The notes under the pieces: model-generated | Told to the model about the DNA's origin: nothing | Database searches by the model: none | What the model saw: the letters and a program-made list of their open reading frames with translations, nothing else | Shown here: positions 3,592 through 17,363 of the stretch, piece after piece | Layout of the letters: each line of letters opens with the position of its first letter | Numbering within the stretch: the first letter of the stretch is position 1 | Position numbers and translations under genes: made by a program | DNA from: Bacteroidota bacterium | GTDB lineage: Bacteria; Bacteroidota; Bacteroidia; B-17B0; Aurantibacillaceae | Assembly (NCBI GenBank): GCA_018267825.1 | Contig: JAFDXR010000011.1 | Span: 62,001-126,000, forward strand | DNA length: 64,000 bases | Reading direction: 5' to 3'

Positions 3592-6500
3592 CTGAAACTG
3601 ATTAAATCCATACAACTGTTTTTTCAGGAGGGTAACTCCGATAAGGTTTACGAAATAGACCTTATCGAAACCAGTGATGACGCTTATGTCGTTAACTTCC
3701 GGTACGGACGGCGCGGCGCTTCCCTCAAGGAAGGAACTAAAACAGCATTTCCTGTAAGCCTTCACGATGCCGAAAAAATATTCGGCGAACTGGAAACAGA
3801 GAAGAGAAAAAAAGGCTACCTGGCTACAGGTGAAAACCCTAATTTTATAGCCGACATTTCGCCCGTGAGGCCTAAAAATAATGACCAGCGGCATAAAACC
3901 ATTCTCAAGCTGCTCAAAGCAGCATTAAATGATGATGAACACGAGAGCTGGCCATTATCAAGAATTATCTGGCGCGCCGGCGAAACAGGTATTACCGAAG
4001 CGACTCCGCTTATTATTAAACTGGCCGACAAAAAAGACCCATTGCAGCTTTATAGTTGCGTATGGGCACTGGGCCGATTGGGCGACCCGGCGGCATTACC
4101 GTTTCTTAAAGAAATCCACCAGCAACCACAGCCCTCTCATATTATTTCGCTGACCGAAGCGGCTATTCTGAATGTAAGCGACGAGGCTGCATTGTCTTCT
4201 GAAATAAAACGCCTTCAACAAACGCTGCCGGCAAGCCTTCAGCAGGCTATTCAAACCGGGGGATCGTTCCTCGAAACATTTATATCTGATCTCTTTACAA
4301 AATTCAACCAGGGTTCCGCCACCTTCCTGGTCACATTATATCTGGTATCCATCAAACAGGATACACTACGAAGCCTTCTGCTGAAAGGCCTGGCCGGGAT
4401 TCCCGTAAAAGCCGGCTATTTTAAAGCGATCCGCCAGATTTTCAAAATCAGTGAAATGCTCAACGATACAGCTGCATATGGAATTCTGACCAAGCGTCTC
4501 GAAGAGAACCGTGCCGGATATTCATCTTCTTATCAATATCTGGATGGTAAATGGGTAGATGTTGCTGCCGAATTAAAAAAAGAAGACAGCAGACTGGCAT
4601 TCTCTCAAAAAACCAAGGCTTATTTTGCAAGACGGGTTGTTCGCACATTACGACGAATGGGAACACTGGCATCTCCCATGTATACAAAATATGCAACGGA
4701 TATCTTATTAAGTTTTGATGACAAAAGAGATTTCGTTCAACCTGAAAAATTCGTTAAGACCTCTTATGTATACAATAGCCAGACCGGTGGCTATTCAACC
4801 TTTGAGAAAGTAACCTGGTACGATAGTTACGCTTCATTTGGCAGTTTATACTATATTCTATACGGACAAAGCTCGCGTTATATACTCAAACCTAAACGTA
4901 CACGCTGGGAATGTGTGCCTCCTTATACACCCGGTGCCACATTTGATCCCATGCGCGAAGAAGCATTCGCGACATTGTGGAACAAAGCGCCGGAAGATAT
5001 TATCCGCCTGCTTTCAAAGAGTTGCTGCGAACGGGTCAGTCAATTTGCCTGTTTTGTTTTTCGCAACAATGCGGCTTTCAAAACACATATTACGGAAACG
5101 CACCTCATTGAATTTCTGAAAAATCCTTCACTGCAGGTCCAGCTGCTTGCCTTTGAGCTTGTCAGAGATTTTTTTGAGACCAAAACTCCATCTTCCGCAT
5201 TAATTGCAGCGTTACTCCTGTCCCAGCCTGAAGACGCAAGGCTTTATGCGCAGCAATGTATTGATAAAGAGCCTCTGCGCTTTTGTAACGACACCGAGCT
5301 CTTGTTGATTCTTCTCCAAAACCATGATCCGGCTTCACACCAATGGCTGCAACAATTTCTGCTCCGCCATAAAGCACAAGCGTCTACACAAAAGGAGGTG
5401 CTTAATCGCTTTCTTCTTTCTGGTTTTCCGGCAGATGAAAAATACATCAGATCTGTAACAGACGTTATCGAAACCTGCTTCGCTGAAGCCATTCACGAAC
5501 TGGATCCAGCACTGATATTTACTCTCCTCAAAAGCCAGGATGTATATATACAAGGGTTTGCCGGAAGACTGCTTGTGCTGCGAAGAGTATCTCCTGGCCT
5601 GGTTCCCGACCAGATTATTTTTTCGTTATTGGAATCAGAAAGTAAAATGGCCCGTAAAGCAGCTATTGATTTACTGAACCTGGTCGATGATAAAGCCCTT
5701 TTGGAAAAACAAAGTCTTATACTCAGCCTTTGCCTTTCTCCACTTCAGGATGTTCGCCAGGCCGCGCAGTCTTTAATTGACAGGCTTCTTATCATTGAAC
5801 CCGAAGCAGGTCCGGGTCTTATTAACCTCTTCATCCCCGTTCTCACGGTTAAGGAAAAATATGAGGGGCTTCACCAGGATATACTCGGGCTTATTTCCAA
5901 CAAACTTATTACATACCTGAAGCATAGTTCCACCAAACAAATTCTTTCGCTCTGCACATCCCGCTACCTTGCTTCACAGGAACTGGGTAATATGCTCCTG
6001 CTTCAATCAAACCACACCTTCAGCATCAGGGAACTGAATCAGCTGGCAGGTTCCGCACTGATGCGAAACCGTGATTTTGTGAAACAGTATTACAGCAATA
6101 ACATTCAGAGAATCCGGGAAGAAAAAAAAGAAACCATTATGCTGGTTGATAACGGCTGGGGCGATGTGCGACAATTTGGCTTTGAGTATTTCAGAAAACA
6201 CTTTAGCGAACAGGATTGGCAACCCGAACTTTTTATTGCCCTGTGCGACAGCATTCATGAAGAAGTACAGGCCTTTGGCCGCGAAATGATCACGCGCTGG
6301 TTCGAAAAAGATAATGGATTCGATTACCTGCTCAGGTTGAGTCAACACCCCGACAGCCGCATGCAATTATTTGCTTCGGGGTTCCTCGACCGTTATGCAC
6401 GCAATAACCATGAGATGCTCAAAAAGCTGAGTGATTTCCTCATCCTGCTTTTATCGCAGGTCAACAAAGGACGTATCGCCAAAACAAGAGCAGTCCGGTT

Positions 6501-6717
6501 ATTAAGCGAAGAAGCGCTGAAACAGGAAGAAAATGCAGCGCTCATTGCTATCATATTCAACAGAATGTCGGCCACGGCATCCGTGCAGGATAAGGCCCTC
6601 TACATAGAAGCCATGCTGCGCATGGCAAAAGTATTCCCGGGCGTTCAACTCCTGTTGCAGATTCACGACACTCCCGTATATTCATCCAAACGTCACAATC
6701 ATGCTGTTCAATTATAA
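3592..6717 (+). CDS. WGR-domain and HEAT-repeat protein, retron accessory (ARM-type) subunit
   Basis: The frame encodes 1041 residues if it starts at the CTG at 3592. The first in-frame ATG/GTG codon, GTG 3865, would cut off a WGR domain at about residues 1-85 (LFFQEGNSDKVYEIDL, then the FRYGRRG core). The start LKLIKS fits the MKLIK-type beginning of such proteins. The rest is helical HEAT/ARM-like repeats, for example around LYSCVWALGRLGDPAALPFL. WGR domains in PARPs and in MolR/YehI-type proteins contact nucleic acid or partner domains. The gene overlaps the SWIM gene by 17 bases, and the retron RNA and reverse transcriptase follow. The domain layout matches the ARM protein of type XIII retrons as I recall them. 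Its biochemical role is unknown. Confidence 0.8.
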   Translation: MKLIKSIQLFFQEGNSDKVYEIDLIETSDDAYVVNFRYGRRGASLKEGTKTAFPVSLHDAEKIFGELETEKRKKGYLATGENPNFIADISPVRPKNNDQRHKTILKLLKAALNDDEHESWPLSRIIWRAGETGITEATPLIIKLADKKDPLQLYSCVWALGRLGDPAALPFLKEIHQQPQPSHIISLTEAAILNVSDEAALSSEIKRLQQTLPASLQQAIQTGGSFLETFISDLFTKFNQGSATFLVTLYLVSIKQDTLRSLLLKGLAGIPVKAGYFKAIRQIFKISEMLNDTAAYGILTKRLEENRAGYSSSYQYLDGKWVDVAAELKKEDSRLAFSQKTKAYFARRVVRTLRRMGTLASPMYTKYATDILLSFDDKRDFVQPEKFVKTSYVYNSQTGGYSTFEKVTWYDSYASFGSLYYILYGQSSRYILKPKRTRWECVPPYTPGATFDPMREEAFATLWNKAPEDIIRLLSKSCCERVSQFACFVFRNNAAFKTHITETHLIEFLKNPSLQVQLLAFELVRDFFETKTPSSALIAALLLSQPEDARLYAQQCIDKEPLRFCNDTELLLILLQNHDPASHQWLQQFLLRHKAQASTQKEVLNRFLLSGFPADEKYIRSVTDVIETCFAEAIHELDPALIFTLLKSQDVYIQGFAGRLLVLRRVSPGLVPDQIIFSLLESESKMARKAAIDLLNLVDDKALLEKQSLILSLCLSPLQDVRQAAQSLIDRLLIIEPEAGPGLINLFIPVLTVKEKYEGLHQDILGLISNKLITYLKHSSTKQILSLCTSRYLASQELGNMLLLQSNHTFSIRELNQLAGSALMRNRDFVKQYYSNNIQRIREEKKETIMLVDNGWGDVRQFGFEYFRKHFSEQDWQPELFIALCDSIHEEVQAFGREMITRWFEKDNGFDYLLRLSQHPDSRMQLFASGFLDRYARNNHEMLKKLSDFLILLLSQVNKGRIAKTRAVRLLSEEALKQEENAALIAIIFNRMSATASVQDKALYIEAMLRMAKVFPGVQLLLQIHDTPVYSSKRHNHAVQL

Positions 6718-8371
6718 ATTCAAAGGTGACACACAGGTGAGCCATAGTGCTACATCTACCGAAATGAATTTTTCGCCGGATGTGACACGTGAGCCTACTT
6801 TTTTTCACGGCGTTCTGAATAAACACATACCGTTTCGTGAGGCCGTTTCCGCATTGCATGATATTGTTGTATCCGATTACCGTTTCAAACCGAAAGATAA
6901 AACCGACTACAAAGCCTGGGCTAAAGAACAGGAAGATATCTGGCTGGCAGACTTCATGAAATCCATGCAAAATGCCGGTGAAAGAATCCAGGTCCTCAGA
7001 AAGGAACTGAGCGATGTGCGCCAGGAAAAAGAAAAACTCCTGGGCCCCTTTCACAAAGCCAGGCGCCGCTATTTTGATTACCTGTACAAAGCAGACAGAG
7101 ACATGTGGATCGTACTGGATCCTATCATTACTGTACATCCCGATGAATTGTTCTTTGAGTGCTTCAGCAAAGACGAATCATCCTATGGTCGTTTAAGCTG
7201 TAGCTACGAAGTATTTACCAATATCAACGATTTTAAATGCGGAACAACCAATATCGATTATTCCTCTGCACTGTATGACGAATTTCAGAAAATCCGCAGC
7301 TACAAAGAAACAAAATTTGTGATTGATCCGGGTGGATTCGAAGTGAGGACAAGCGATCAGGAATCATTCAAGGAAACAAAGATTGATGTTCCGGAAAGCT
7401 GGGTACGAGGCTTACTTCAGGTAAACTCTGCTATGATGCTCGGGGGAAGTGAGATAGAGCTTCACCCCATGGACATCTATAATATCTGCTTTCACCTGAA
7501 ACGAAAAAAGGAAAAAGAAGGACCGCGTTCACTGCGTTTTCAGCTTGCTCCGGGAAAACCGCTGCGTGTTATTTTTGAGCCCTGGAATTTTATACTGGAG
7601 TGTCCGCGCTCTGTGTATACAGGCGCACAAGAAACCGAAGTCCGCATATGGGGGCGGCGCAGGCTTCTCCTGCTCGAAAGGCTTATTCCGGTAACCAGAT
7701 CATTCCGGGCCATATTCATGGGCACAGGCCTGCCCTCTTTTTTCATTGCCGACATGGGCGATATGAGCTTTACACTCGGGCTCTCCGGATGGACTGCCAA
7801 CGATTGGTCGAATCAGGGAAATTTTGACCTTCTGGCACCGCGCATGCAGGTAGACCCCATGACAGCACAACAAGTATATTCCGCATTGCGAAAACCGTGG
7901 TTCAATACTGCAGATAAACTGGCGGGCGAATTAAATACCGACACAAAAACCGTGATGAGTGCTTTCATGACCTTTGCACAATCGGGGCGCGCTATGTACG
8001 ATATCAATAAAAAAGTTTTCAGGATCCGTGAATTAAGCCGGGAACCGCTGGACGGTTCAAAACTACGCTTTGCCAACGAGCGCGAAGAAGAAGCCAGAAC
8101 CCTCGCAGGAAGTGGTGCTGTAGAGATTACAGGTAACCAGACTCTGCCAAACGGAAACAGAAAACTCACGGGAACTGTTGCAGAAAAAGGAAAAAAATAT
8201 CATCCGGAAATTAATTTCAACACAGACGACGCTGTTGTTTCCGCGACATGTACTTGCCATTATTACACACAGAATAAATTATACAAGGGTCCATGCGGAC
8301 ACATGATCGCTTTGAACATCCAGTATCGCGAAAAAGAATTAACAACAAAAAAACTATTTAATATTTTTTAG
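6701..8371 (+). CDS. SWIM zinc-finger protein with winged-helix region, retron accessory (WHSWIM-type) subunit
   Basis: The 556-residue product ends with a SWIM finger of form CxCx12CxH: Cys517, Cys519, Cys532 and His534 (CTCHYY then PCGHM). Just before it, around residues 390-450, is a winged-helix-like stretch (AQQVYSALRKPWFNTADKLA, then a strand-rich FRIRELS). SWIM fingers bind DNA or proteins. The start overlaps the WGR/HEAT gene by 17 bases, which suggests translational coupling. The retron RNA begins 18 bases after its stop. A winged-helix SWIM protein paired with a HEAT/ARM protein and a retron reverse transcriptase is the reason for the type XIII assignment. I see no nuclease or ATPase motif, so the toxic activity, if any, is unexplained. 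Confidence 0.8.
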   Translation: MLFNYKFKGDTQVSHSATSTEMNFSPDVTREPTFFHGVLNKHIPFREAVSALHDIVVSDYRFKPKDKTDYKAWAKEQEDIWLADFMKSMQNAGERIQVLRKELSDVRQEKEKLLGPFHKARRRYFDYLYKADRDMWIVLDPIITVHPDELFFECFSKDESSYGRLSCSYEVFTNINDFKCGTTNIDYSSALYDEFQKIRSYKETKFVIDPGGFEVRTSDQESFKETKIDVPESWVRGLLQVNSAMMLGGSEIELHPMDIYNICFHLKRKKEKEGPRSLRFQLAPGKPLRVIFEPWNFILECPRSVYTGAQETEVRIWGRRRLLLLERLIPVTRSFRAIFMGTGLPSFFIADMGDMSFTLGLSGWTANDWSNQGNFDLLAPRMQVDPMTAQQVYSALRKPWFNTADKLAGELNTDTKTVMSAFMTFAQSGRAMYDINKKVFRIRELSREPLDGSKLRFANEREEEARTLAGSGAVEITGNQTLPNGNRKLTGTVAEKGKKYHPEINFNTDDAVVSATCTCHYYTQNKLYKGPCGHMIALNIQYREKELTTKKLFNIF

Positions 8372-8389
8372 TATCATTATAAAAACATT

Positions 8390-8401
8390 GGAAGAGGCAG
8401 T
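8390..8401 (+). repeat. Retron a1 repeat
   Basis: GGAAGAGGCAGT is the exact reverse complement of 8594-8605. Pairing stops at exactly 12 bp, because the flanking bases on both sides do not match. It marks the 5' end of the retron RNA and begins 18 bases after the stop of the SWIM gene. Confidence 0.88.
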
Positions 8402-8481
8402 ATTACATCTTGCAACCCGGTTCGTGTATCGCGATCCATGCCAACAGCTCAGTAACGCATCACTGGCCTGTTCTTTACTTT

Positions 8482-8554
8482 GCAATACTGCACCTACTGT
8501 ATCATTTCCGGTGAGACTTCCCGGAAGTGAAATAATACAGTAGGTGCGTATTGC
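8482..8554 (+). repeat. msd-type long hairpin
   Basis: The arms 8482-8502 and 8535-8554 form 20 base pairs with a single bulged T at 8489 (core GCACCTACTGTAT with ATACAGTAGGTGC). A second stem of nine pairs, one of them G-U, forms at 8503-8511 with 8521-8529 around a 9-base loop. An unpaired AAATA at 8530-8534 separates the two stems. This is the long hairpin expected to be reverse transcribed into the msDNA. Confidence 0.85.
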
Positions 8555-8593
8555 TTGAGTTGACCAATCCAGTCCTCAAGTAGTACGAAGAAA

Positions 8594-8605
8594 ACTGCCT
8601 CTTCC
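8594..8605 (+). repeat. Retron a2 repeat
   Basis: ACTGCCTCTTCC is the exact reverse complement of the a1 repeat at 8390-8401. It ends 13 bases before the GTG start of the reverse transcriptase, so the RNA and the reverse transcriptase message are probably made from one transcript. Confidence 0.88.
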
Positions 8606-8618
8606 TTTTTAAAGAAAC

Positions 8619-10121
8619 GTGAATCGCCAGGAAATATACGATCGTATAAAGAACTCATCCAAAGATGCCGTCATACTGGAGGAGATGAAGAAATTTGGTT
8701 TCTGGAATGAAACCGAAGGGCAATCGTCGCTTCCTGAACAGCTCATCATGCAGGAAGCCAGACTCAGCAAGGAACTCTACGACCTTCTGGAGAAACAGCG
8801 TAAGTATCAGGATCGTGAAAAAGCGCTGAAGGAAATGCGGACAGCACGTCTCCAGAAATCAAGGGAAAAGATTGCCGAAAACAAACGCCTGCGTAAAGAA
8901 AAAAAAGAACAAAGGGCACAGGACTGGAAAAACTCCAAACAAAAAGATATTATCTACCTGGGTCCCACCGTATCCAAAGGCCTGCAACAAACAGCAGACG
9001 GTGAGTCCGACAAGTTAAAACAAAAACAATTACCGCTCATTCATACTGCCGAAGAACTGGCCTCTCAAATGGGAATCGGGATCGGCGAACTTCGTTTTCT
9101 TTCCTATAACAGGCCCGTAAGTACAGTGAGCCATTACAGGCAGTTTCAGATGCCTAAAAAAACCGGTGGCTTCCGGAAAATATCAGCACCAATGCCTAAA
9201 CTCAAAGAGGCACAACACTGGATACTGCATTATATACTCAACAAGCTGCCTGTACATGAAAATGCACATGGGTTTACACTCAGGAAATCAATTGTTACAA
9301 ATGCACAACCCCATCTTCAAAAGGTTTTACTGATCAACATTGACCTGAAAGATTTTTTCCCCTCCATTCATTATCCCCGTGTAAAAGGCATGTTCAGAGG
9401 CATGGGTTACAATGAAAAAATAGCTACGCTGCTGGCCCTTATCTGCACGGAATCAGAAACAGACGAAGTAGAGCTCGACGGAAAAAAATATTTCGTAAAA
9501 AGTGGTAACCGTGCTTTACCCCAGGGTGCCCCAACAAGCCCGGCCATCACAAATTATCTCTGCCGCAGGCTTGATGCCAGATTGAGCGGACTTGCCCGTA
9601 AATATCATTTTACGTACACCCGGTACGCCGACGACATGACATTTTCTTTTTCTGCGGACCAACAGGACTCTATAAAAACCTGCATAGGTTTTATTAAGAA
9701 AACAATTCGCACCGAAAATTTCAACATCCATCCTGATAAATTCAAAGTTCTCAGAAAAGGTGCCCGCCATGAAGTTACCGGCGTTGTGGTTAACAATAAA
9801 TTATCGGTTGACAGCAAAAAACTCAAAAAATTCAGAGCTACACTTTACCAGATTGAGAAACACGGACTCCAGGGCAAACACTGGAATCACTCTCACAACC
9901 TGCTGGCTTCCTTAAAAGGCTATGCCAACTTCATCAATCAGGTAGATCCTGTAAAAGGAAAAATATATACTGAGCGTGTGCGGAAAATACTGGATCAATA
10001 TCAGTATAGACACGAAATTATTTTCAAACCAAAACCAAAACCTTCGCCGTTGAAGGAAATACCGAACCCAATACCTGCCCCGGAAGCAAAAACCAGGAAA
10101 CCATGGTGGAAATTCTGGTAA
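8619..10121 (+). CDS. Retron reverse transcriptase
   Basis: This 500-residue enzyme carries the reverse transcriptase palm motifs: motif A INIDLKDFF (about 239-247, Asp242), PQGAPTSP (301-308) and the catalytic YADD (336-339). It also has both retron-specific marks, NAQPH (228-232, the NAxxH motif of region X) and VTG (386-388, region Y). The first 140 residues are a Lys/Arg/Glu-rich probable coiled coil not needed for catalysis, longer than in many retron enzymes. The start is a GTG at 8619, thirteen bases after the a2 repeat. The product would copy the msd part of the upstream RNA into covalently branched msDNA. No maturase, endonuclease or diversity-generating partner is present, which argues against group II intron or DGR origin. 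Confidence 0.92.
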   Translation: MNRQEIYDRIKNSSKDAVILEEMKKFGFWNETEGQSSLPEQLIMQEARLSKELYDLLEKQRKYQDREKALKEMRTARLQKSREKIAENKRLRKEKKEQRAQDWKNSKQKDIIYLGPTVSKGLQQTADGESDKLKQKQLPLIHTAEELASQMGIGIGELRFLSYNRPVSTVSHYRQFQMPKKTGGFRKISAPMPKLKEAQHWILHYILNKLPVHENAHGFTLRKSIVTNAQPHLQKVLLINIDLKDFFPSIHYPRVKGMFRGMGYNEKIATLLALICTESETDEVELDGKKYFVKSGNRALPQGAPTSPAITNYLCRRLDARLSGLARKYHFTYTRYADDMTFSFSADQQDSIKTCIGFIKKTIRTENFNIHPDKFKVLRKGARHEVTGVVVNNKLSVDSKKLKKFRATLYQIEKHGLQGKHWNHSHNLLASLKGYANFINQVDPVKGKIYTERVRKILDQYQYRHEIIFKPKPKPSPLKEIPNPIPAPEAKTRKPWWKFW

Positions 10122-10199: not shown

Positions 10200-10227
10200 T
10201 TGACAGGTATTGCCTTTGAAAAAAAAC

Positions 10228-10235
10228 TATCTTTG
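10228..10235 (+). promoter_or_regulatory. Promoter -7 box for the NAD/ADP-ribose operon
   Basis: TATCTTTG fits the Bacteroidota -7 consensus TAnnTTTG exactly. A TTTG at 10199-10202 is the best -33 candidate, although its 25-base spacing is a little long. The two operators flank or overlap these boxes, which fits repression by blocking RNA polymerase. Confidence 0.5.
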
Positions 10236-10250
10236 TGTATAAATTACACT
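10234..10250. promoter_or_regulatory. NrtR-type operator 2
   Basis: TGTGTATAAATTACACT holds the half-sites GTGTA and TACAC with a 5-base spacer, matching operator 1 in layout. The centres of the two sites are 51 bases apart, close to five helical turns. It overlaps the end of the TATCTTTG box and ends three bases before the ATG of the regulator gene, so bound protein would block initiation. Confidence 0.65.
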
Positions 10251-10253
10251 AAG

Positions 10254-10955
10254 ATGAAACAAAATACACGGCATACCTACGAATTTCCAAGACCCGCGCT
10301 TGCAACAGACTGTGTCATTTTTGGTTTCGATGGCGGTGAACTGAAACTACTTCTCACCGAAAGAGAAAAAGAGCCATTCAGAAATAAGTGGGCACTTCCA
10401 GGTGGATTTGTATTTATCGAAGAAACAACAGAAGCCTGTGCCAAAAGAATTCTGTTTGAAAAAGCAGGCGTAAAACATGTTTTCATCGAACAGCTTTACA
10501 CGTTCAGTGAACCCGATCGCGATCCGCGTGAACGCATTGTATCGGTAGCGTACTTCGCCCTTGTGAACAAACATCAGTACGATGTTATTGCGGGCCGCGA
10601 TACACTTAAAGCTGAATGGTTCGAAATTTCCAACCTTCCCAAACTGGCCTTTGACCACGGAAAAATGGTAAAAATGGCCATTCAGCGTCTGAAAGGAAAA
10701 GTTTCCTACCAGCCCATTGGTTTCGAATTACTGGATGAAAAATTTACCCTGTCGCAATTACAAACGCTCTACGAAGCCATCTTGGGAAACCCCATCGATA
10801 AAAGGAATTTTAGAAAAAAAATATTAGGCATGGGGCTGCTTACTGAACTCAATGAAAAAGAAAAAAATGTAGCCCGTAAAGCAGCCCGCTATTACAGTTT
10901 TAACAATAAAGCATACAAGGAACTAACACAAAAAGGATTTCACTTCGAATTATAA
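10254..10955 (+). CDS. nrtR: NrtR-family NAD metabolism transcriptional regulator (Nudix domain plus winged helix)
   Basis: The 233-residue protein has an N-terminal Nudix domain (about 20-150) and a C-terminal winged-helix region (about 150-233), the NrtR layout. The Nudix box starts as usual (PGGFVFIEET) but reads RILFEKAG where active enzymes have REUxEExG. Two catalytic glutamates are therefore lost, which points to an ADP-ribose sensor rather than a hydrolase. I chose ATG 10254, since the upstream TTG at 10200 lies within the operator region. NrtR proteins release DNA on binding ADP-ribose or related NAD metabolites. The gene heads an operon with NAD salvage genes and is preceded by two palindromic sites, so it is probably autoregulated. 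Confidence 0.82.
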   Translation: MKQNTRHTYEFPRPALATDCVIFGFDGGELKLLLTEREKEPFRNKWALPGGFVFIEETTEACAKRILFEKAGVKHVFIEQLYTFSEPDRDPRERIVSVAYFALVNKHQYDVIAGRDTLKAEWFEISNLPKLAFDHGKMVKMAIQRLKGKVSYQPIGFELLDEKFTLSQLQTLYEAILGNPIDKRNFRKKILGMGLLTELNEKEKNVARKAARYYSFNNKAYKELTQKGFHFEL

Positions 10956-10966
10956 AACTTCTTGCC

Positions 10967-11788
10967 ATGAAAACGATAAACCTATTTGAATCAAATGAAA
11001 CAGTGGAACTGAAAAAATTTGCAGGCGGTGAATGCCATGTGAAATTTCTCAAAGAATTCAATGACACCGATAAAGTCAGAATCAATACCCGGCTAAACTC
11101 CTCCGACGACATCATGAATCTCTGCCTCGCCGTGGATGCACTGCGTAACATGTACGTCGGATACATCGAAGTTTTTATTCCTTATATTCCCTACGCCCGC
11201 CAGGATAGAATTATGGTCGTCGGCGAACCTCTGTCTGTGAAGGTATTTGCAGGCATCATCAATAGCCTGAACCTGAACAGGGTAATTGTTTTTGATGCAC
11301 ATAGCGATGTCTCTGTCGCTCTGATAAACAATTGCACAAACATAACAAACCATGCAATGGTCAGACATTTCCTGGATGTTTTAAACCTGAGAGATTTTGT
11401 ACTCGTATCGCCAGACCTGGGTGCTTACAAAAAAGTGGATAAACTGGCTTCCAAACTTGATTACAAAGGCCGGATTGCCACAGGCATTAAAGTTCGCGAC
11501 CTCTCAACCGGACAGATCATTAAAAGTGATGTAAACACAGATGATCTGAAAGGAAAAGCCTGCGTAGTTGTAGACGACATCTGCGATGGAGGGCGCACGT
11601 TCATTGAACTGGGCACAGCACTGAAAGCGAAAGATGCCGGGGAGCTGTACTTCATAGCATCACATGGCATTTTCAGTCACAATGCTCTGGATCGTCTCAA
11701 AGAAGCCGGGTATAAAAGTGTGTGCAGTTCAAACTCCATCTCAAACATTGTTGAAACTGATTTCTATAAACAATATAATCTGTTCTGA
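10967..11788 (+). CDS. Ribose-phosphate pyrophosphokinase homologue (short PRPP-synthetase family)
   Basis: The protein is 273 residues against about 310 for housekeeping PRPP synthetases. It keeps the YARQDR motif (here PYARQDR), a metal/ATP region FDAHSD, a K-x-R pair in the flexible-loop region (GIKVRD), and the ribose-phosphate loop VVDDICDGGRT. The reaction would be pyrophosphoryl transfer from ATP to ribose-5-phosphate. Because it is 11 bases after nrtR and in an operon with a NAMPT homologue, it probably supplies that enzyme's co-substrate. Phage NARP1 pathways use a PRPP-synthetase homologue (Adps) that instead pyrophosphorylates ADP-ribose, so the true substrate here is open. Confidence 0.85.
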   Translation: MKTINLFESNETVELKKFAGGECHVKFLKEFNDTDKVRINTRLNSSDDIMNLCLAVDALRNMYVGYIEVFIPYIPYARQDRIMVVGEPLSVKVFAGIINSLNLNRVIVFDAHSDVSVALINNCTNITNHAMVRHFLDVLNLRDFVLVSPDLGAYKKVDKLASKLDYKGRIATGIKVRDLSTGQIIKSDVNTDDLKGKACVVVDDICDGGRTFIELGTALKAKDAGELYFIASHGIFSHNALDRLKEAGYKSVCSSNSISNIVETDFYKQYNLF

Positions 11789-11789
11789 A

Positions 11790-12341
11790 ATGAAATATTC
11801 AGTAGAGTGGCTCAAAGCTGAAATAGCAGACCACAAAACAAAAGACTATCTCTTTTTCTGGGGACACCGGGCTACCCGCAAAGGTGTTATCAGCAAAACC
11901 TGTTTCAGTCAATGGTGGCCTGCTGCATTCAAAGAGAATGACACCATGTATCAAACCGCAGAACATTATATGATGGTATCCAAAGCACGCTTATTTAAAG
12001 ACGATGAGATCGCCGGAAAAATACTCGCTAAAGAAAATCCAAAAGACGCCAAAGACCTAGGGCGACAGATCAGAAATTTTGATGCCACGGTCTGGGACAA
12101 CAAAAAGTACAATATTGTAAAACAGGGTAATTTTCTGAAATTTTCGCAACATGAAGACCTTTCGCTCTTCCTCCGGAAAACAGGTTCCAAAATACTTGTA
12201 GAAGCAAGTCCGGTTGATCCTATCTGGGGGATCGGACTTTCAGAAGATCACTCCGACGCCCTAACACCCCATCATTGGAAAGGTCAGAATCTGCTGGGAT
12301 TTGCCCTGATGGAAGTGCGTGATGAATTAAACAAACTATAA
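11790..12341 (+). CDS. NADAR-domain protein (YbiA-like)
   Basis: The 183-residue protein matches the NADAR/YbiA family: FFWGHRA near the start, FSQWWPAAF, YQTAEHYMMVSKA in the middle and DPIWGIGL with W-x-G-x-N-x-L-G toward the end. Members act as N-glycosidases on ribosylated or ADP-ribosylated substrates, including removal of ADP-ribose from guanine in nucleic acids and cleavage of riboflavin intermediates. It starts at 11790, one base after the previous stop. Its operon neighbours all handle NAD or ADP-ribose, so an ADP-ribose role is more likely here than a riboflavin one. Confidence 0.85.
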   Translation: MKYSVEWLKAEIADHKTKDYLFFWGHRATRKGVISKTCFSQWWPAAFKENDTMYQTAEHYMMVSKARLFKDDEIAGKILAKENPKDAKDLGRQIRNFDATVWDNKKYNIVKQGNFLKFSQHEDLSLFLRKTGSKILVEASPVDPIWGIGLSEDHSDALTPHHWKGQNLLGFALMEVRDELNKL

Positions 12342-12342
12342 A

Positions 12343-12951
12343 ATGAAACCATTGAATATCATATTATCCGCCATTGAATCCGAACTGATAGAGGCCTGGA
12401 GGCTTTATTTTCATAACGAACCAAACGTCTCTATAACCGATGAAGACATCACAAAAATCTCATGCTCTGCTATCGTAAGCCCGGCAAATTCATTCGGCTT
12501 TATGGATGGGGGACTCGACTATCAGCTCTCTGTCAGATTTGGTTGGGATTTAGAGAAAAGACTGCAAACAATTATCAAGTCTCTTCCTGAAGGTGAATTA
12601 CTCGTTGGCCAGGCAATCGTCATTGAAACCAATGATCAGGTGATTCCATATCTGATCTCGGCCCCAACAATGAGAATACCAACCAATTTCAACATTGATA
12701 CTTCTGTAAATGCTTACCTGGCTATGAAAGCCATTTTAATAAAAGCAACTCATGCTCCCGACATTTTATCTGTCGCAATTCCAGGTTTGTGTACAGGCAC
12801 TGGTCGTATGAAGCCTGAAATAGCAGCTAAACAGATGTATCAGGCATACAAAGAAATTATACTTGGTGAAAAAATGAATTTTAAAGAATTTGGAGAAGCT
12901 CAGAAATACCAATGGAACATGAACCCTCTTAGCCTTATCTGGACACATTAA
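12343..12951 (+). CDS. Macro-domain protein (ADP-ribose-binding or hydrolase)
   Basis: The 202-residue product has a macro-domain pattern: SCSAIVSPANSFGFMDGG (the VNAAN-like loop), a strand with PYLISAPT, and the second phosphate loop GLCTGTGRM. The family binds or hydrolyses ADP-ribose derivatives such as ADP-ribosylated macromolecules or ADP-ribose 1''-phosphate. This type, with SPANSFG, differs from the MacroD-like protein encoded at 17360-17875, so the operon has two distinct macro proteins. It sits one base after the NADAR gene and one base before the KptA gene, which would generate ADP-ribose 1'',2''-cyclic phosphate as a by-product. Confidence 0.8.
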   Translation: MKPLNIILSAIESELIEAWRLYFHNEPNVSITDEDITKISCSAIVSPANSFGFMDGGLDYQLSVRFGWDLEKRLQTIIKSLPEGELLVGQAIVIETNDQVIPYLISAPTMRIPTNFNIDTSVNAYLAMKAILIKATHAPDILSVAIPGLCTGTGRMKPEIAAKQMYQAYKEIILGEKMNFKEFGEAQKYQWNMNPLSLIWTH

Positions 12952-12952
12952 C

Positions 12953-13492
12953 ATGAAAGATTTAAAACATATCAGCAAATTCCTCAGTCTTATACTGAGA
13001 CATAAACCCGAAGAAATCGGAATCCACATGGATGCAAACGGTTGGGTATCGGTCGATGAACTCATTGAAAAATGCAACACACACAACCACAAACTCACCT
13101 TCGATCTGTTGGAAGAAGTTGTTTTTACAAATGATAAACAGCGTTTCACATTCAGCGACGACTACATGAGCATACGAGCCAACCAGGGACACACCGTGCA
13201 GGTTGATTTACAACTCGATGCGCAGCAACCACCGGAATACCTCTTCCATGGAACAGTAGCAAAATTCATGGATGCGATCCGCGAAAACGGTCTCCTTAAA
13301 ATGCAGAGGCAGCATGTCCACCTCAGCAAAGACCTCGAAACCGCTGTGAAAGTAGGAAGCCGGAGAGGAAGACCCATCATCCTCAAAATAAATGCCGCCG
13401 CCATGCACCTCGACGGATATACCTTCTACCATTCCAAAAATGGTGTCTGGCTATGCCATGAAGTTCCTGTTAAGTACATTCAATTTGAATAA
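12953..13492 (+). CDS. kptA: RNA 2'-phosphotransferase, KptA/Tpt1 family
   Basis: The 179-residue protein carries the family signatures: SKFLSLILRHKP with the catalytic Arg-His pair near residue 19, a winged-helix part with GWVSVDEL, then SIRANQGH, LFHGT and the Arg-rich RRGRP. KptA moves an internal RNA 2'-phosphate to NAD+, giving ADP-ribose 1'',2''-cyclic phosphate and nicotinamide. Related enzymes can also ADP-ribosylate nucleic acid ends. Bacteria have no intron-spliced tRNA that needs this step, so a role in RNA repair or nucleic-acid ADP-ribosylation within this NAD cluster is a reasonable inference. The gene is one base from the preceding macro-domain gene. Confidence 0.88.
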   Translation: MKDLKHISKFLSLILRHKPEEIGIHMDANGWVSVDELIEKCNTHNHKLTFDLLEEVVFTNDKQRFTFSDDYMSIRANQGHTVQVDLQLDAQQPPEYLFHGTVAKFMDAIRENGLLKMQRQHVHLSKDLETAVKVGSRRGRPIILKINAAAMHLDGYTFYHSKNGVWLCHEVPVKYIQFE

Positions 13493-13493
13493 C

Positions 13494-14042
13494 ATGAAAA
13501 AAACCGAGCTGGATTCTTTTATATACCTGATAGAAGATTTCCTGACCGCAGACGAATGCGATAACTATATTATCTGGAGTGAACAAAAAGGCTATGAAGA
13601 AGCCAAAGTTCAGGTATATGGCACGCAAATGATGATGAAAGCAGTACGTAACAATTCACGAATCACATTCATTGATCATGAATTAGCCGGAAAAATCTGG
13701 GACCGATTCAAACCATTTGCTCAGGAACGTTTTGCGAACAGCCACGTGTTGGGTCTAAATGAAATGTTCCGCTTCTATAAATACGAACCTGGTCAGCGTT
13801 TCAAAAAACATATTGACGGTAGTTACATTCGTAATGCCGAAGAAAGCAGCTACTTTACCCTGCTGATCTACCTGAACGATGATTTTGAAGGCGGCGAAAC
13901 CACCTTCCAGTATCATACCGTCAAACCCAAAAAGGGAACTGCACTTGTTTTCTACCATGGCATCAGGCATGCCGGTGAGCCCATCACCCGTGGAACAAAA
14001 TATGTATTGCGCACCGATGTCATGTATAAACTCATCGCATGA
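13494..14042 (+). CDS. 2-oxoglutarate/Fe(II)-dependent oxygenase (prolyl 4-hydroxylase-like)
   Basis: The 182-residue product has the double-stranded beta-helix iron site: H-x-D in KKHIDGSY, a distal His in IRHAGEP, and the 2-oxoglutarate-binding Arg in YVLRTD. GGETTFQ is typical of the P4Hc subgroup. Such enzymes hydroxylate proteins or nucleic acids using O2 and 2-oxoglutarate. The start is ATG 13494, one base after the KptA gene, and its end overlaps the next gene by four bases (ATGA). The substrate is unknown. Its place in the operon suggests oxidation of a modified macromolecule or nucleotide. Confidence 0.82.
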   Translation: MKKTELDSFIYLIEDFLTADECDNYIIWSEQKGYEEAKVQVYGTQMMMKAVRNNSRITFIDHELAGKIWDRFKPFAQERFANSHVLGLNEMFRFYKYEPGQRFKKHIDGSYIRNAEESSYFTLLIYLNDDFEGGETTFQYHTVKPKKGTALVFYHGIRHAGEPITRGTKYVLRTDVMYKLIA

Positions 14043-14776
14043 AACCAGAAACCTATATCATAGGCGATATCCACGGAGCTTTCAGGGCTCTCGAACAGGT
14101 TATTTCACAGGCTCCCCTGCAGGCCGCCGACACCCTCATTTTTCTTGGCGACTACGTCGATGGCTGGAGTCAGTCTGCTGAAGTAATCGATTACCTGATT
14201 ACACTGCGGCAAACCTATTCGTGTATTTTCATCAGGGGCAATCATGATACCTGGTGTGAATCCTGGCTGCAAAGCGGCAAAGCCGATGCAACATGGCTGT
14301 TCCATGGCGGACAATCTACCGTAACCGCTTACTGCAACCTGTCTGATGCAATAAAAAAACAGCATCTGGAATTTTTCAACCGGATGCAGGATTATTATGT
14401 GGATGCAAACAATGATTTATTCATACACGCCGGATACACCTCCATGCATGGCCCAGCCAAAGAAGTACATGCTTCGGATTATTCATGGGACCGTACACTC
14501 TGGGAAACAGCACTCTCTGCAGATCCTGCTCTGACCACACAGGACCTGTTTTTTCCAAAACGCCTGAGCCTGTTCCGGAATATATATATCGGGCATACAC
14601 CTACAACCCATTATAATGTGTTCACGCCTATGCAGGCCCTCAACGTATGGAACATTGATACCGGTGCCGCATTTCATGGCAAGCTAACCATGATGCAGGT
14701 ATCCACAAAACAATACTGGCAAAGCGAAACCGTGCAAACACTCTATCCCGGCGAAAAGGGAAGAAATAAAGATTAA
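14039..14776 (+). CDS. Serine/threonine phosphatase-type metallophosphatase
   Basis: This 245-residue enzyme shows the full calcineurin-like metal-site series: GDIHG near residue 8, GDYVDG near 40, GNHD near 66, an IHAG stretch in the middle and GHTPT toward the end. Bacterial relatives (PrpA/ApaH-like) dephosphorylate proteins, diadenosine tetraphosphate, or polynucleotide termini. The start overlaps the preceding stop (ATGA). In this setting a phosphatase acting on ADP-ribose phosphates or RNA ends would fit, but the sequence alone does not decide. Confidence 0.83.
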   Translation: MKPETYIIGDIHGAFRALEQVISQAPLQAADTLIFLGDYVDGWSQSAEVIDYLITLRQTYSCIFIRGNHDTWCESWLQSGKADATWLFHGGQSTVTAYCNLSDAIKKQHLEFFNRMQDYYVDANNDLFIHAGYTSMHGPAKEVHASDYSWDRTLWETALSADPALTTQDLFFPKRLSLFRNIYIGHTPTTHYNVFTPMQALNVWNIDTGAAFHGKLTMMQVSTKQYWQSETVQTLYPGEKGRNKD

Positions 14777-14780
14777 TACA

Positions 14781-15422
14781 ATGCATTTTGAAAAATATAC
14801 AGACCAACTACAAAGATTGCCCAAACAGGGGAAACACATTATTGGGCACCTGGAAAACAACACAATCACCGTGTACCAGGCGTTTAATCCGCTTATTGCG
14901 GAATACGCTGCAGAGCGCCAGGTTTTCGGAGGCCCCCATTACAGCTTCAGTCGCATGTCATGGATCAAACCCGGATTTCTCTGGATGATGTACCGTGCCG
15001 GATGGGCCTCTAAAGAACATCAGCAAAACATCCTGGCCATTACACTACCCTTGGAACACTTTTATACCATCCTGTCAAAAGCTACACATAGCTCATACAA
15101 CCAGAATGTGTATCCTACAAAAGAAGCCTGGCAAAAAGAACTTGAACAAACGGAAGTGCGGATCCAGTGGGACCCTGACCATGATCCGGTCGGGAAAAAA
15201 CAAGACCGCCGGGCCATACAACTCGGACTCAAAGGAGAAACATTACAAAAATTTGCTACGCAGTGGATCAGCCGGATCGATGACATAACGCCCTTTGTAA
15301 AAAATGAATATGAAAAATTAAAAGCCGGATATAGCAACGATCTCCTGGTTCCTTTCGAAAACGTTTTAAAAATCGAAAATCCATCCATTGCTAAACGCAT
15401 CGGTATCTATGAAAATAATTAA
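14781..15422 (+). CDS. DUF4291 family protein
   Basis: The 213-residue product fits the DUF4291 family as I recognise it: VYQAFNPLIAEYAA near residue 35, then SFSRMSWIKPGFLWMMYR, and QWDPDHDP before a conserved basic RRAIQLGL. No biochemical activity is established to my knowledge. It starts four bases after the phosphatase gene and overlaps the next gene by 14 bases, so it is firmly part of the NAD/ADP-ribose operon. This makes a nucleotide- or NAD-related role plausible. Confidence 0.75.
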   Translation: MHFEKYTDQLQRLPKQGKHIIGHLENNTITVYQAFNPLIAEYAAERQVFGGPHYSFSRMSWIKPGFLWMMYRAGWASKEHQQNILAITLPLEHFYTILSKATHSSYNQNVYPTKEAWQKELEQTEVRIQWDPDHDPVGKKQDRRAIQLGLKGETLQKFATQWISRIDDITPFVKNEYEKLKAGYSNDLLVPFENVLKIENPSIAKRIGIYENN

Positions 15423-15873
15423 GCCCCCATATTCCCTGAAGGATTCAGACAATCACTACACCATCTTCCTCGCAGGTTCCATCGAAATGGGAAACGCAGA
15501 AGACTGGCAAAGTCAGGTTACCTCAGCCTTTCAGGAAACAGAAAACATTTGCTTTCTGAATCCGCGGCGCACCGACTGGGATAGCAGCTGGAAACAAGAC
15601 ATCGGCAATCCTGGCTTTCTTGAGCAGGTAACCTGGGAACTCCATGGTCTTGAAAAAGCCGACCTCATCCTGTTTTATTTTTCACCTGAAACAAAATCGC
15701 CGGTAAGTTTACTGGAGCTTGGATTATTTGCACGAAGCAAAAAAACAGTCGTCTGCTGCCCGCATGGCTTTTGGCGCAAAGGAAACATAGATATCGTATG
15801 CAGACGCTTTGATATCCCACAACTGGAAACAATCACCGAATTAATAAACCATATAAAAACAATTGCTTTATGA
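15409..15873 (+). CDS. Nucleoside 2-deoxyribosyltransferase-like protein
   Basis: The 154-residue protein has a Rossmann-like fold signature of the deoxyribosyltransferase family: FLAGSIEMG near the start, FLNPRR in the middle and LEKADLILFYF followed by SLLELG, where the Glu is the usual nucleophile. Family members transfer or hydrolyse N-glycosidic bonds of nucleosides and nucleotides, including NAD-like substrates. I chose ATG 15409, which overlaps the DUF4291 gene by 14 bases. Its stop overlaps the next start by four bases. The precise substrate cannot be read from the sequence. Confidence 0.75.
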   Translation: MKIIKPPYSLKDSDNHYTIFLAGSIEMGNAEDWQSQVTSAFQETENICFLNPRRTDWDSSWKQDIGNPGFLEQVTWELHGLEKADLILFYFSPETKSPVSLLELGLFARSKKTVVCCPHGFWRKGNIDIVCRRFDIPQLETITELINHIKTIAL

Positions 15874-17363
15874 GAATCAATCCTTTAATGTTAATCGACT
15901 TCTACAAAGCCGACCACAGGCGCCAGTACCCCGAAGGTACCGAAATGGTGTATTCAAACTTTACTCCACGCAAATCGCGCCAGGCCGGTAACGAAAACCT
16001 CGTATTCTTTGGCTTGCAGTACTTTGTCAAAGAGTACCTCATCAAACAATGGAACGAGGGATTTTTTAATCTGCCAAAAGAAAAGGTTGTGGCCGATTAT
16101 AAACGGCGCATGGATAATGCCCTCGGGAAAGACAGTATTCCGGTAGAGCACATTGCCGAACTTCATGACCTCGGCTATCTCCCCCTGGTTGTTAAGGGCC
16201 TGCCTGAAGGCACAATCGTATCACCAAAAATTCCGGTAGTAACCGTCTACAATACCAAACCGAAATTTTTCTGGCTCACCAATTACCTGGAATCCCTCAT
16301 GTCGGCTATTCTCTGGAAACCATCTACCAGTGCAACAACGGCATTTCAATATAGAAAAACTTTCAACGAATATGCACGGAATACTGTAAGCGACACAAAC
16401 ATCGACTTCGTATACTGGCAAGGCCATGACTTCAGCTTCAGAGGTATGAGCGGTATCGAAGATGCATGCATCAGTGCCGCCGGGCACCTCCTTTCATTCT
16501 ACGGGACAGATACTGTTCCGGCTATTGATTTTCATGAATTATACTACGGAGGAAATTCGGACAGGGAACTCATTGGCGGCAGTGTGCCTGCCACTGAACA
16601 CTCCGTGATGTGCATGGGCACAAAAGACAATGAAATAGGTACTTTTGAACGTTTGATCACCGAACTTTATCCTGCAGGTATTGTGTCGATCGTATCCGAC
16701 ACCTGGGATTTCTGGCAAGTCATCACAGACTATCTGCCTCAGCTGAAAAACAAAATTCTCGCCCGTCCCGGAAAAGTAGTGATTCGCCCGGATAGCGGTG
16801 ACCCTGTAAAAATCATTGTTGGCGATAAGGATGCCACTCCCGGAAGCCCGGAATACAAAGGCGCTATAGAATGTATGTGGGAAACCTTTGGCGGTACCAT
16901 TACCGAAAAAGGTTATAAACTCCTGGATGAACATATCGGGCTTATCTATGGTGACAGCATCACGCTGCAACGCCAGCAAGCCATCCTGGAAGGACTCCGG
17001 GAAAAAGGATTTGCATCTTTCAATGTCGTGCTTGGCATTGGTTCCTATACATACGAATACGTAACCCGCGATACCTACGGTTTTGCCATGAAAGCAACCT
17101 ATGGTGAAGTAAACGGCGAAGCCCGCAATATTTTCAAGGATCCTAAAACCGATGACGGAACAAAAAAATCAGCCAAAGGTCTCTTATGCGTGTACGAAGA
17201 AAATGGCACACTTCATTTAAAAGACCAATGCTCCTGGACTGAAGAGAAACAAGGGCTCCTTCAAACTGTATTCGAAAACGGAAAAATGGTAAATGAACAA
17301 TCCCTGTCAGAGATCCGAAATCGGATCAACAATCAACTGGAAAAAACATCGCTTTCCAAATGA
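15870..17363 (+). CDS. nadV: Nicotinamide phosphoribosyltransferase (NAMPT/NadV family)
   Basis: The 497-residue protein is the length of NAMPT and shows its key regions: YKADHRRQYPEGTEMVYSNF near the start, FSFRGMSGIEDA with GTDTVPA, the phosphohistidine motif ATEHS, SDTWDFWQV, VIRPDSGDP and GIGSYTYEYVTRDTYGFAMK. The reaction joins nicotinamide with PRPP to give NMN, the first step of one-enzyme nicotinamide salvage. Its co-substrate could come from the PRPP-synthetase homologue at 10967-11788. Phage Namat enzymes are NAMPT homologues that use ADP-ribose pyrophosphate, and motif reading cannot exclude that alternative. It overlaps both neighbours by four bases. Confidence 0.9.
   Translation: MRINPLMLIDFYKADHRRQYPEGTEMVYSNFTPRKSRQAGNENLVFFGLQYFVKEYLIKQWNEGFFNLPKEKVVADYKRRMDNALGKDSIPVEHIAELHDLGYLPLVVKGLPEGTIVSPKIPVVTVYNTKPKFFWLTNYLESLMSAILWKPSTSATTAFQYRKTFNEYARNTVSDTNIDFVYWQGHDFSFRGMSGIEDACISAAGHLLSFYGTDTVPAIDFHELYYGGNSDRELIGGSVPATEHSVMCMGTKDNEIGTFERLITELYPAGIVSIVSDTWDFWQVITDYLPQLKNKILARPGKVVIRPDSGDPVKIIVGDKDATPGSPEYKGAIECMWETFGGTITEKGYKLLDEHIGLIYGDSITLQRQQAILEGLREKGFASFNVVLGIGSYTYEYVTRDTYGFAMKATYGEVNGEARNIFKDPKTDDGTKKSAKGLLCVYEENGTLHLKDQCSWTEEKQGLLQTVFENGKMVNEQSLSEIRNRINNQLEKTSLSK

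What the first reader, a model, noticed from the sequence alone, without database searches (positions are those of the whole stretch)
3592..10121. Complete retron: WGR/HEAT protein, winged-helix SWIM protein, msr-msd RNA and reverse transcriptase
Four parts lie in one direction with tight spacing: two accessory proteins overlapping by 17 bases, then a structured RNA gap, then a reverse transcriptase bearing NAQPH, VTG and YADD. As I recall the published retron classification, ARM/HEAT plus WHSWIM is type XIII. Retrons are anti-phage systems, but how this type acts is not established to my knowledge. The WGR domain on the HEAT protein is a notable extra, since WGR binds nucleic acid or partner domains in PARPs and could contact msDNA.
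Basis: partly seen in the sequence, partly recalled or inferred. Interest (0 to 1): 0.93.

Follow-up and report, generated by a model that had tools for sequence, protein, structure and literature searches.

The report
Complete type XIII retron defence locus
This is an intact, already classified (type XIII) bacterial retron, a likely anti-virus system that makes a small DNA from a structured RNA and carries two partner proteins of unknown action; related loci show that the RNA structure is conserved and suggest that the protein pair was borrowed from another kind of bacterial conflict system.

Summary
At 3592-10121 lie, in one direction, a WGR/HEAT protein, a SWIM protein (17-base overlap), a 247-nt gap holding a strongly folded RNA, and a reverse transcriptase (RT). 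PADLOC's own type XIII retron profiles match all three proteins almost end to end (WGR_XIII 5e-300, SWIM_XIII 2e-227, RT_XIII 7e-182), so the classification is right. The 'extra' WGR domain is not extra: it is part of the published profile. The RNA is real: in 14 loci 37 of 49 pairs change on both sides and still pair, none of 500 shuffles reaches this, and it is not in Rfam. Beyond the known: (1) strong SWIM_XIII hits occur in exactly the RT_XIII genomes of a 395-genome sample, but distant SWIM homologues sit beside another WGR-superhelix protein in loci without RT, in one genome in a row with a MoxR AAA+/bpX cassette; (2) the WGR gene starts with a non-ATG codon in 12 of 13 loci where it comes first; (3) RT and SWIM protein carry type-specific, coiled-coil-like additions. 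Best mechanism: RT-msDNA holds the WGR/SWIM pair in check until phage infection; this is inferred, not shown. New member of a known kind.

The parts
3592..6717 (+). WGR-HEAT accessory protein (1041 aa), CTG start; WGR domain about 3592-3828, HEAT repeats from about 3913 to the end
   Evidence: PADLOC WGR_XIII E 4.8e-300; Pfam WGR 7.6e-07 and HEAT_2 2.7e-12; alignment A3 of 12 homologues; low-confidence all-helical solenoid model, pLDDT 60
3592..3594 (+). Inferred non-canonical start codon CTG of the WGR-HEAT gene
   Evidence: No ATG/GTG/TTG in frame before codon 91; homologues start at the same place with TTG, CTG or GTG
6701..8371 (+). SWIM accessory protein (556 aa), ATG start; CxC...CxH zinc finger at about 8231-8323
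   Evidence: PADLOC SWIM_XIII E 2.4e-227; Pfam SWIM 3.4e-04; C517, C519, C532, H534 invariant in 16 homologues
8390..8605 (+). msr-msd non-coding RNA: a1 8390-8401 pairs with a2 8594-8605
   Evidence: Fold z -9.5; inverted repeats; 37 of 49 pairs with both-side changes; model R1 124.6 bits here and no other match at E up to 1 elsewhere in the genome; no Rfam match
8412..8412 (+). Candidate branching guanosine in the invariant CTTGC just 3' of a1 (inferred)
   Evidence: C30 T31 T32 G33 C34 of alignment A1 invariant; assignment by analogy with known retrons (PMC8989520)
8419..8437 (+). msr stem-loop 1
   Evidence: Helix 2: 98.2% of cells paired, 6 of 8 pairs with both-side changes
8462..8573 (+). 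Conserved closing helix ACTGG (8462-8466) with CCAGT (8569-8573) around the msd hairpin
   Evidence: Helix 3: 97.1% of cells paired, 3 of 5 pairs with both-side changes
8481..8554 (+). Long msd hairpin, presumed reverse-transcription template
   Evidence: Arms 8490-8508/8529-8547, extended by the fold; helices 5-7 covary
8585..8590 (+). Invariant ACGAAG next to a2, presumed start of the template (inferred)
   Evidence: Invariant in all aligned loci
8619..10121 (+). Retron reverse transcriptase (500 aa), GTG start: N-terminal extension aa 1-131, RT core about 132-460, aromatic/basic C-terminal tail ...KPWWKFW
   Evidence: PADLOC RT_XIII E 6.9e-182; Pfam RVT_1 5.4e-21; best solved relative Ec86 retron RT; alignment A4; tree

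Best explanation
The locus is a complete type XIII retron. SHOWN by sequence: one operon-like set encodes a WGR-HEAT protein, a SWIM protein, a covarying msr-msd RNA and a retron RT. INFERRED from established retron biology: the RT binds the folded RNA, primes from the 2'-OH of a guanosine just after a1 (candidate G8412) and copies the msd hairpin into msDNA. INFERRED: the RT-RNA-msDNA complex binds the WGR-HEAT/SWIM pair and keeps it inactive; an infecting phage disturbs the msDNA or the complex (for example by nuclease, DNA-binding or modifying proteins), which frees or rearranges the pair, and the cell stops growing before the phage is made. The WGR-HEAT/SWIM pair would act as one nucleic-acid-binding effector unit: HEAT solenoid as scaffold, WGR and SWIM as nucleic-acid or partner-binding ends. 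The type-specific coiled-coil-like additions on the RT N-terminus and on the SWIM protein are the likely docking parts. Non-ATG starts would keep the WGR-HEAT protein scarce relative to its restrainer. [quoted passage not shown]
For: Identity: PADLOC type XIII profiles for all three proteins; RT relatives are retron RTs and the WGR-bearing type XIII RTs form a supported clade (SH-aLRT 95). RNA: z -9.5, 37 of 49 pairs with both-side changes, 95.8% of cells paired against 33.7-48.8% when slid, single copy in the genome. Unit of three proteins: in a 395-genome sample the 6 genomes with strong SWIM_XIII (E up to 1e-169) are the same 6 that have RT_XIII. Docking additions: RT residues 1-131 lie outside the match to Ec86 RT yet are conserved; SWIM residues about 77-135 are absent from RT-less homologues and resemble the geminin coiled coil only by weak hits. 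Scarcity: non-ATG start in 12 of 13 WGR-first loci, SWIM ATG in all those read. Recruitment: RT-less SWIM homologues (hhalign 99.8%, E 1e-28) beside WGR+DUF6493 proteins, in a row with bpMoxR/bpX-like genes in L154. Analogy: in other retrons accessory proteins can be toxins neutralised by RT and msDNA (PMC8989520); a type IX retron uses msDNA plus a winged-helix protein to hold back its toxin (PMC13405049 abstract).
Against: [quoted passage not shown] Nothing shows msDNA, toxicity or phage defence for this locus or, in the papers held, for any type XIII retron. The HEAT region of the RT-less WGR proteins is not detectably homologous to that of type XIII; only the WGR part aligns (89%), so recruitment as a pair is not proved. 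Start-codon counts come from related loci and are not independent. Structure models were poor (SWIM pLDDT 34, WGR-HEAT 60).
Confidence: 0.5

Rival explanations
1. The WGR-HEAT/SWIM pair is not itself toxic: it is a sensor-adaptor that recruits a host machine (for example a MoxR-type AAA+ chaperone or an RNA-processing enzyme) when msDNA is disturbed, and that host machine does the damage.
For: No catalytic domain in either protein; RT-less homologues lie beside bpMoxR/bpX genes in G421 and on the same contig stretch in G371.
Against: The window's genome and most type XIII genomes have no bpMoxR gene, so a bpMoxR partner cannot be general; several SWIM/WGR pairs also occur in genomes without bpMoxR.
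Confidence: 0.25
2. The RT, RNA and pair serve a cellular role (stress response, DNA or RNA repair) rather than phage defence.
For: In the window and in G047 the gene set just downstream includes RNA-repair and NAD/ADP-ribose genes.
Against: Downstream genes differ at every other locus, the system is rare and patchy (6 of 395 genomes), and degraded copies exist, as expected of mobile defence genes rather than a housekeeping function.
Confidence: 0.15
3. Inactive relic: the locus no longer works because the WGR gene has lost its start codon.
For: No ATG/GTG/TTG start near the WGR domain in this window.
Against: The same CTG occurs in G047, and other relatives use TTG or GTG at the same site; all frames are open, catalytic motifs intact and the RNA well paired.
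Confidence: 0.05

Closest known systems
Type XIII retrons (PADLOC retron XIII: RT_XIII, WGR_XIII or HEAT-ARM_XIII, SWIM_XIII)
   Same: All three proteins match their profiles nearly end to end; same gene order as most relatives
   Different: Nothing essential; CTG start of the WGR gene, also seen in G047
Ec86 (Retron-Eco1) and other retrons with solved RT structures
   Same: RT core homologous over aa 132-420 (E 8e-37); a1/a2-flanked RNA
   Different: Type XIII RT has an extra conserved N-terminal 131 aa and an aromatic/basic C-terminal tail; partners are WGR-HEAT and SWIM proteins instead of an NDT-type effector
Type IX retron-Kva2 (HEPN RNase plus winged-helix protein)
   Same: Two accessory proteins, one a presumed winged-helix nucleic-acid binder (PMC13405049)
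   Different: No HEPN or other RNase domain found here
MoxR-vWA-beta-propeller ternary conflict systems (bpMoxR, bpX0/1/3/4; PMC7159879)
   Same: In L154 such a cassette runs in a row with a WGR-superhelix gene and a homologous SWIM gene
   Different: No bpMoxR in the window's genome; no RNA of this kind in those loci

Membership tests
Type XIII retron | RT of the retron lineage with type XIII best match | tested here: met
   RT_XIII 603.6 bits, next best retron profile 288; PDB relatives are retron RTs; tree places it with retron RTs (only one, very long-branched, non-retron RT as outgroup)
Type XIII retron | Retron RT motifs NAxxH, YxDD, VTG | tested here: met
   NAQPH 228-232, YADD 336-339, VTG 386-388; N, A, H and VTG invariant in 15 relatives. 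That these motifs mark retron RTs is from general knowledge
Type XIII retron | WGR/HEAT-ARM and SWIM accessory genes | tested here: met
   WGR_XIII 4.8e-300, SWIM_XIII 2.4e-227
Type XIII retron | Structured msr-msd RNA flanked by a1/a2 inverted repeats near the RT | tested here: met
Type XIII retron | Priming guanosine next to a1 and 2'-5' branched msDNA | not testable with these tools
   An invariant G (8412) sits at the expected place; the product needs an experiment
Type XIII retron | Anti-phage activity | not testable with these tools
   No assay; no paper found on type XIII function, but the key retron classification paper is not held
MoxR-vWA-beta-propeller ternary system | bpMoxR AAA+ ATPase gene | tested here: not met
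   PF20030 search of the whole genome: none at E 1e-20
MoxR-vWA-beta-propeller ternary system | vWA/bpX component next to it | tested here: not met
   No vWA or bpX match among the ten proteins scanned around the locus

The most novel reading that the evidence does not exclude
Type XIII retrons are a chimera: a retron RT and RNA took over a ready-made WGR-superhelix/SWIM module of the kind found beside MoxR-vWA-beta-propeller conflict systems, so that msDNA replaces the AAA+/vWA chaperone pair as the switch. Two poorly understood systems without recognised effectors would then share one unknown way of acting.
Probability: 0.3. Interest if true: 0.7.

Novelty: new member of a known kind. Interest (0 to 1): 0.45.

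Why it matters
How type XIII retrons act is, as far as the held literature shows, unknown, and neither accessory protein has a recognisable enzyme. The locus gives a complete, intact example with a defined, covariation-supported RNA (no Rfam family), testable docking parts, and a link between this retron type and a second conflict system described as lacking conventional effectors. Finding the action of the shared WGR-superhelix/SWIM pair could explain both.

Tried and rejected
(1) WGR as a special addition to this locus: rejected, it is in PADLOC's type XIII profile and in 13 of the 16 loci tabulated. (2) Functional link to the downstream NAD/ADP-ribose/RNA-repair cluster: G047 also has RNA-repair genes downstream (RNA ligase, Thg1), but the ORFs listed downstream at other loci show no such recurrence (those were judged by sequence clustering, not by domain scans), so treated as neighbourhood chance. 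Not used as evidence beyond 'helical solenoid'. (4) E. coli yeh operon (WGR, MoxR-family, vWA and SWIM genes together) as a homologue: YehQ shares no detectable similarity with the type XIII SWIM protein beyond the finger; kept as an analogy only. (5) Viral copies: SWIM_XIII not found in IMG/VR; viral retron RTs found there are distant, at most 40% identity, as are those in phage records (at most 38%). (6) ncRNA in the HEAT-only type XIII variant: RNA model R1 finds none, and SWIM-RT spacing there is about 10 bases. (7) Literature: no paper on type XIII function found; the classification paper is not held.

Full report
OBSERVATION. The four parts exist as described. Frames, coordinates and the 17-base overlap are confirmed. 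The gap 8372-8618 folds far better than shuffled sequence (z -9.5) and is closed by an inverted repeat.

IDENTITY. PADLOC names all three proteins type XIII retron components: WGR_XIII (4.8e-300, profile 2-971 of 973), SWIM_XIII (2.4e-227), RT_XIII (6.9e-182; next best retron profile less than half the bits). Pfam adds WGR, HEAT_2, SWIM finger and RVT_1. In the PDB the RT's relatives are retron RTs, led by Ec86 (E 8e-37), far ahead of the GsI-IIC intron RT (1e-4). In a tree with 28 RTs from viral contigs, the 15 WGR-bearing type XIII RTs group together (SH-aLRT 95) and the window lies with its family members (99); the HEAT-only type XIII RTs form a second group (99), and the union has only weak support (64). 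The sole outgroup is a very long branch, so the tree supports retron membership less strongly than the profile scores do.

RELATIVES. Matching loci were found in Chitinophagaceae (G033/L006 Sediminibacterium, G047), a second Bacteroidota family (f5 in the tool's labels, ten or more genomes), f57 (G859, G872), a more distant member of the phylum (G366) and Methylobacterium bullatum. Type XIII is rare: 6 of 395 genomes of the phylum. The ORFs downstream differ from locus to locus, as for mobile cargo. Two loci (L027, L028) have the order RT-WGR-SWIM with the RNA still upstream of the RT. Three (L031, L038, L039) have a HEAT protein without WGR, and no room for the RNA between SWIM and RT.

THE RNA. 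Fourteen loci were aligned. RNAalifold gives 49 pairs, 37 with at least one both-side change. A fixed-structure count gives 95.8% of cells paired, against 77.8% in column shuffles and 33.7-48.8% with partners slid by 1-3 columns; 0 of 500 shuffles reach any of the five measures (the structure was derived from the same alignment, which favours it in the slide control, and related rows inflate cell counts). All seven helices have both-side changes, including the a1/a2 helix (7 of 8 pairs) and the ACTGG/CCAGT helix that encloses the msd hairpin (ACCGG/CCGGT in L006, ACTGA/TCAGT in the f5 loci). CTTGC just after a1 and ACGAAG just before a2 are invariant; by analogy with known retrons (PMC8989520) they should hold the priming guanosine and the start of the template. 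A covariance model of the msd half finds the window copy (124.6 bits) and no other in the genome, none in the RT-less SWIM/WGR loci searched, and none in HEAT-only loci (one antisense match to the same hairpin at E 0.36). Rfam 15 has no match.

THE PROTEINS. The SWIM protein keeps CxC...CxH (C517, C519, C532, H534) in all 16 homologues. A winged helix before it is weakly supported. In the 395-genome sample, strong SWIM_XIII matches fall in exactly the six RT_XIII genomes, so this form goes with the retron. Weaker matches (E about 1e-62 and 1e-28) fall in genomes mostly without it. These shorter SWIM proteins (about 440 aa) are true homologues (hhalign 99.8%, E 1.3e-28 over 434 columns). In the loci read they adjoin a large superhelical protein; in five this begins with a WGR-like domain, and in the two scanned with Pfam it is followed by DUF6493/DUF7824/DUF7825. 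In L154 the pair runs on into genes of 210, 377 (AAA ATPase), 244, 817 and 572 aa; in G371 the counterparts are bpX4, bpMoxR, an unscanned protein, bpX0/bpX1 and bpX3, components that Pfam assigns to MoxR-vWA-beta-propeller ternary systems, and there they lie tail to tail with the type XIII retron and about 7 kb from a second WGR/SWIM pair. Kaur et al. describe those systems as showing no conventional effector modules (PMC7159879). A bpMoxR search found it in 7 of 26 genomes; five genomes with RT-less SWIM homologues lack it, so the pair does not depend on it. The superhelical parts of the two WGR proteins are not detectably alike; only the WGR part aligns. Kinship of the SWIM genes is therefore well supported; recruitment of the pair and its direction are inference.

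TYPE-SPECIFIC PARTS. The RT's first 131 residues lie outside the match to Ec86 RT but are conserved in type XIII (ILEEMKxxGFW motif, charged helix-like stretch). The SWIM protein has a stretch of about 60 residues absent from RT-less homologues. Both look like coiled coils by composition; this was not tested formally. I infer that they dock to each other. Many type XIII RTs end in an aromatic/basic tail (KPWWKFW, KKLFSWFK), and the Methylobacterium RT ends in a membrane-hairpin-like segment, which hints at membrane contact.

START CODONS. In 13 loci where the WGR gene comes first, the start is TTG (9), CTG (2, including the window), GTG (1) or ATG (1, Methylobacterium). The exact starts are inferred from alignment of the WGR domain; L033 has an in-frame ATG 22 codons upstream, so its true start is less sure. 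The SWIM gene starts with ATG in all loci read. The rows are related, but three different rare codons at one site suggest that weak initiation is kept by selection.

MECHANISM. The best-supported model is the tripartite one: RT and msDNA hold the WGR-HEAT/SWIM unit until infection. Identity as a type XIII retron: about 0.97. Toxicity of the pair, the trigger and the target are unknown; overall confidence in the mechanism is 0.5. Rivals: an adaptor recruiting host machinery (0.25), a cellular role (0.15), a relic (0.05).

LIMITS. No held paper treats type XIII function, and the paper that defines retron types is not held, so 'unknown' is limited to this library.

Noticed in passing
window 10200-17363: Downstream cluster: NrtR-type Nudix regulator, short PRPP-synthetase-like protein (273 aa), NADAR, macro domain, KptA/Tpt1, oxygenase-like and phosphatase-like genes, NAMPT-like enzyme. 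Looks like NAD salvage plus ADP-ribose/RNA-end repair; from memory the Prs/NAMPT pair resembles NAD+ reconstitution enzymes of phages, not tested.
   Followed up: partly
L043 10025-11026 (own genome contig C32, about 110.5-111.5 kb): A second, stand-alone retron-like RT (333 aa) nearest to type XI/I-C/XII profiles, in an island with a serine-recombinase-like gene and DUF262-like genes by eye; no fused effector seen in the open frame.
   Followed up: partly
L031, L038, L039: HEAT-only type XIII variant without WGR: SWIM and RT about 10 bases apart, RNA not found by model R1; a Flavo-1 RNA lies just upstream of the HEAT gene in L038 and L039, and L038 has a near-perfect 20-bp hairpin further upstream. 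Where its msr-msd lies is open.
   Followed up: partly
L025 10000-10785: The Methylobacterium bullatum type XIII RT carries a long C-terminal extension ending in two hydrophobic segments and a basic tail, as if membrane-anchored.
   Followed up: no
L026 3096-5050 (G047): RNA ligase and tRNA-His guanylyltransferase (Thg1) genes directly downstream of the G047 retron.
   Followed up: partly
L041 (G067) and L042 (G015): Degraded type XIII-like RTs: only the C-terminal half in G067, two in-frame stops in G015.
   Followed up: no
L159 4475-18945 (E. coli K-12 yehF-yehQ): WGR, DUF4132, MoxR-family, DUF5682, vWA and SWIM genes in a row: an analogous gene company in E. coli without detectable SWIM-protein homology beyond the finger.
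   Followed up: yes
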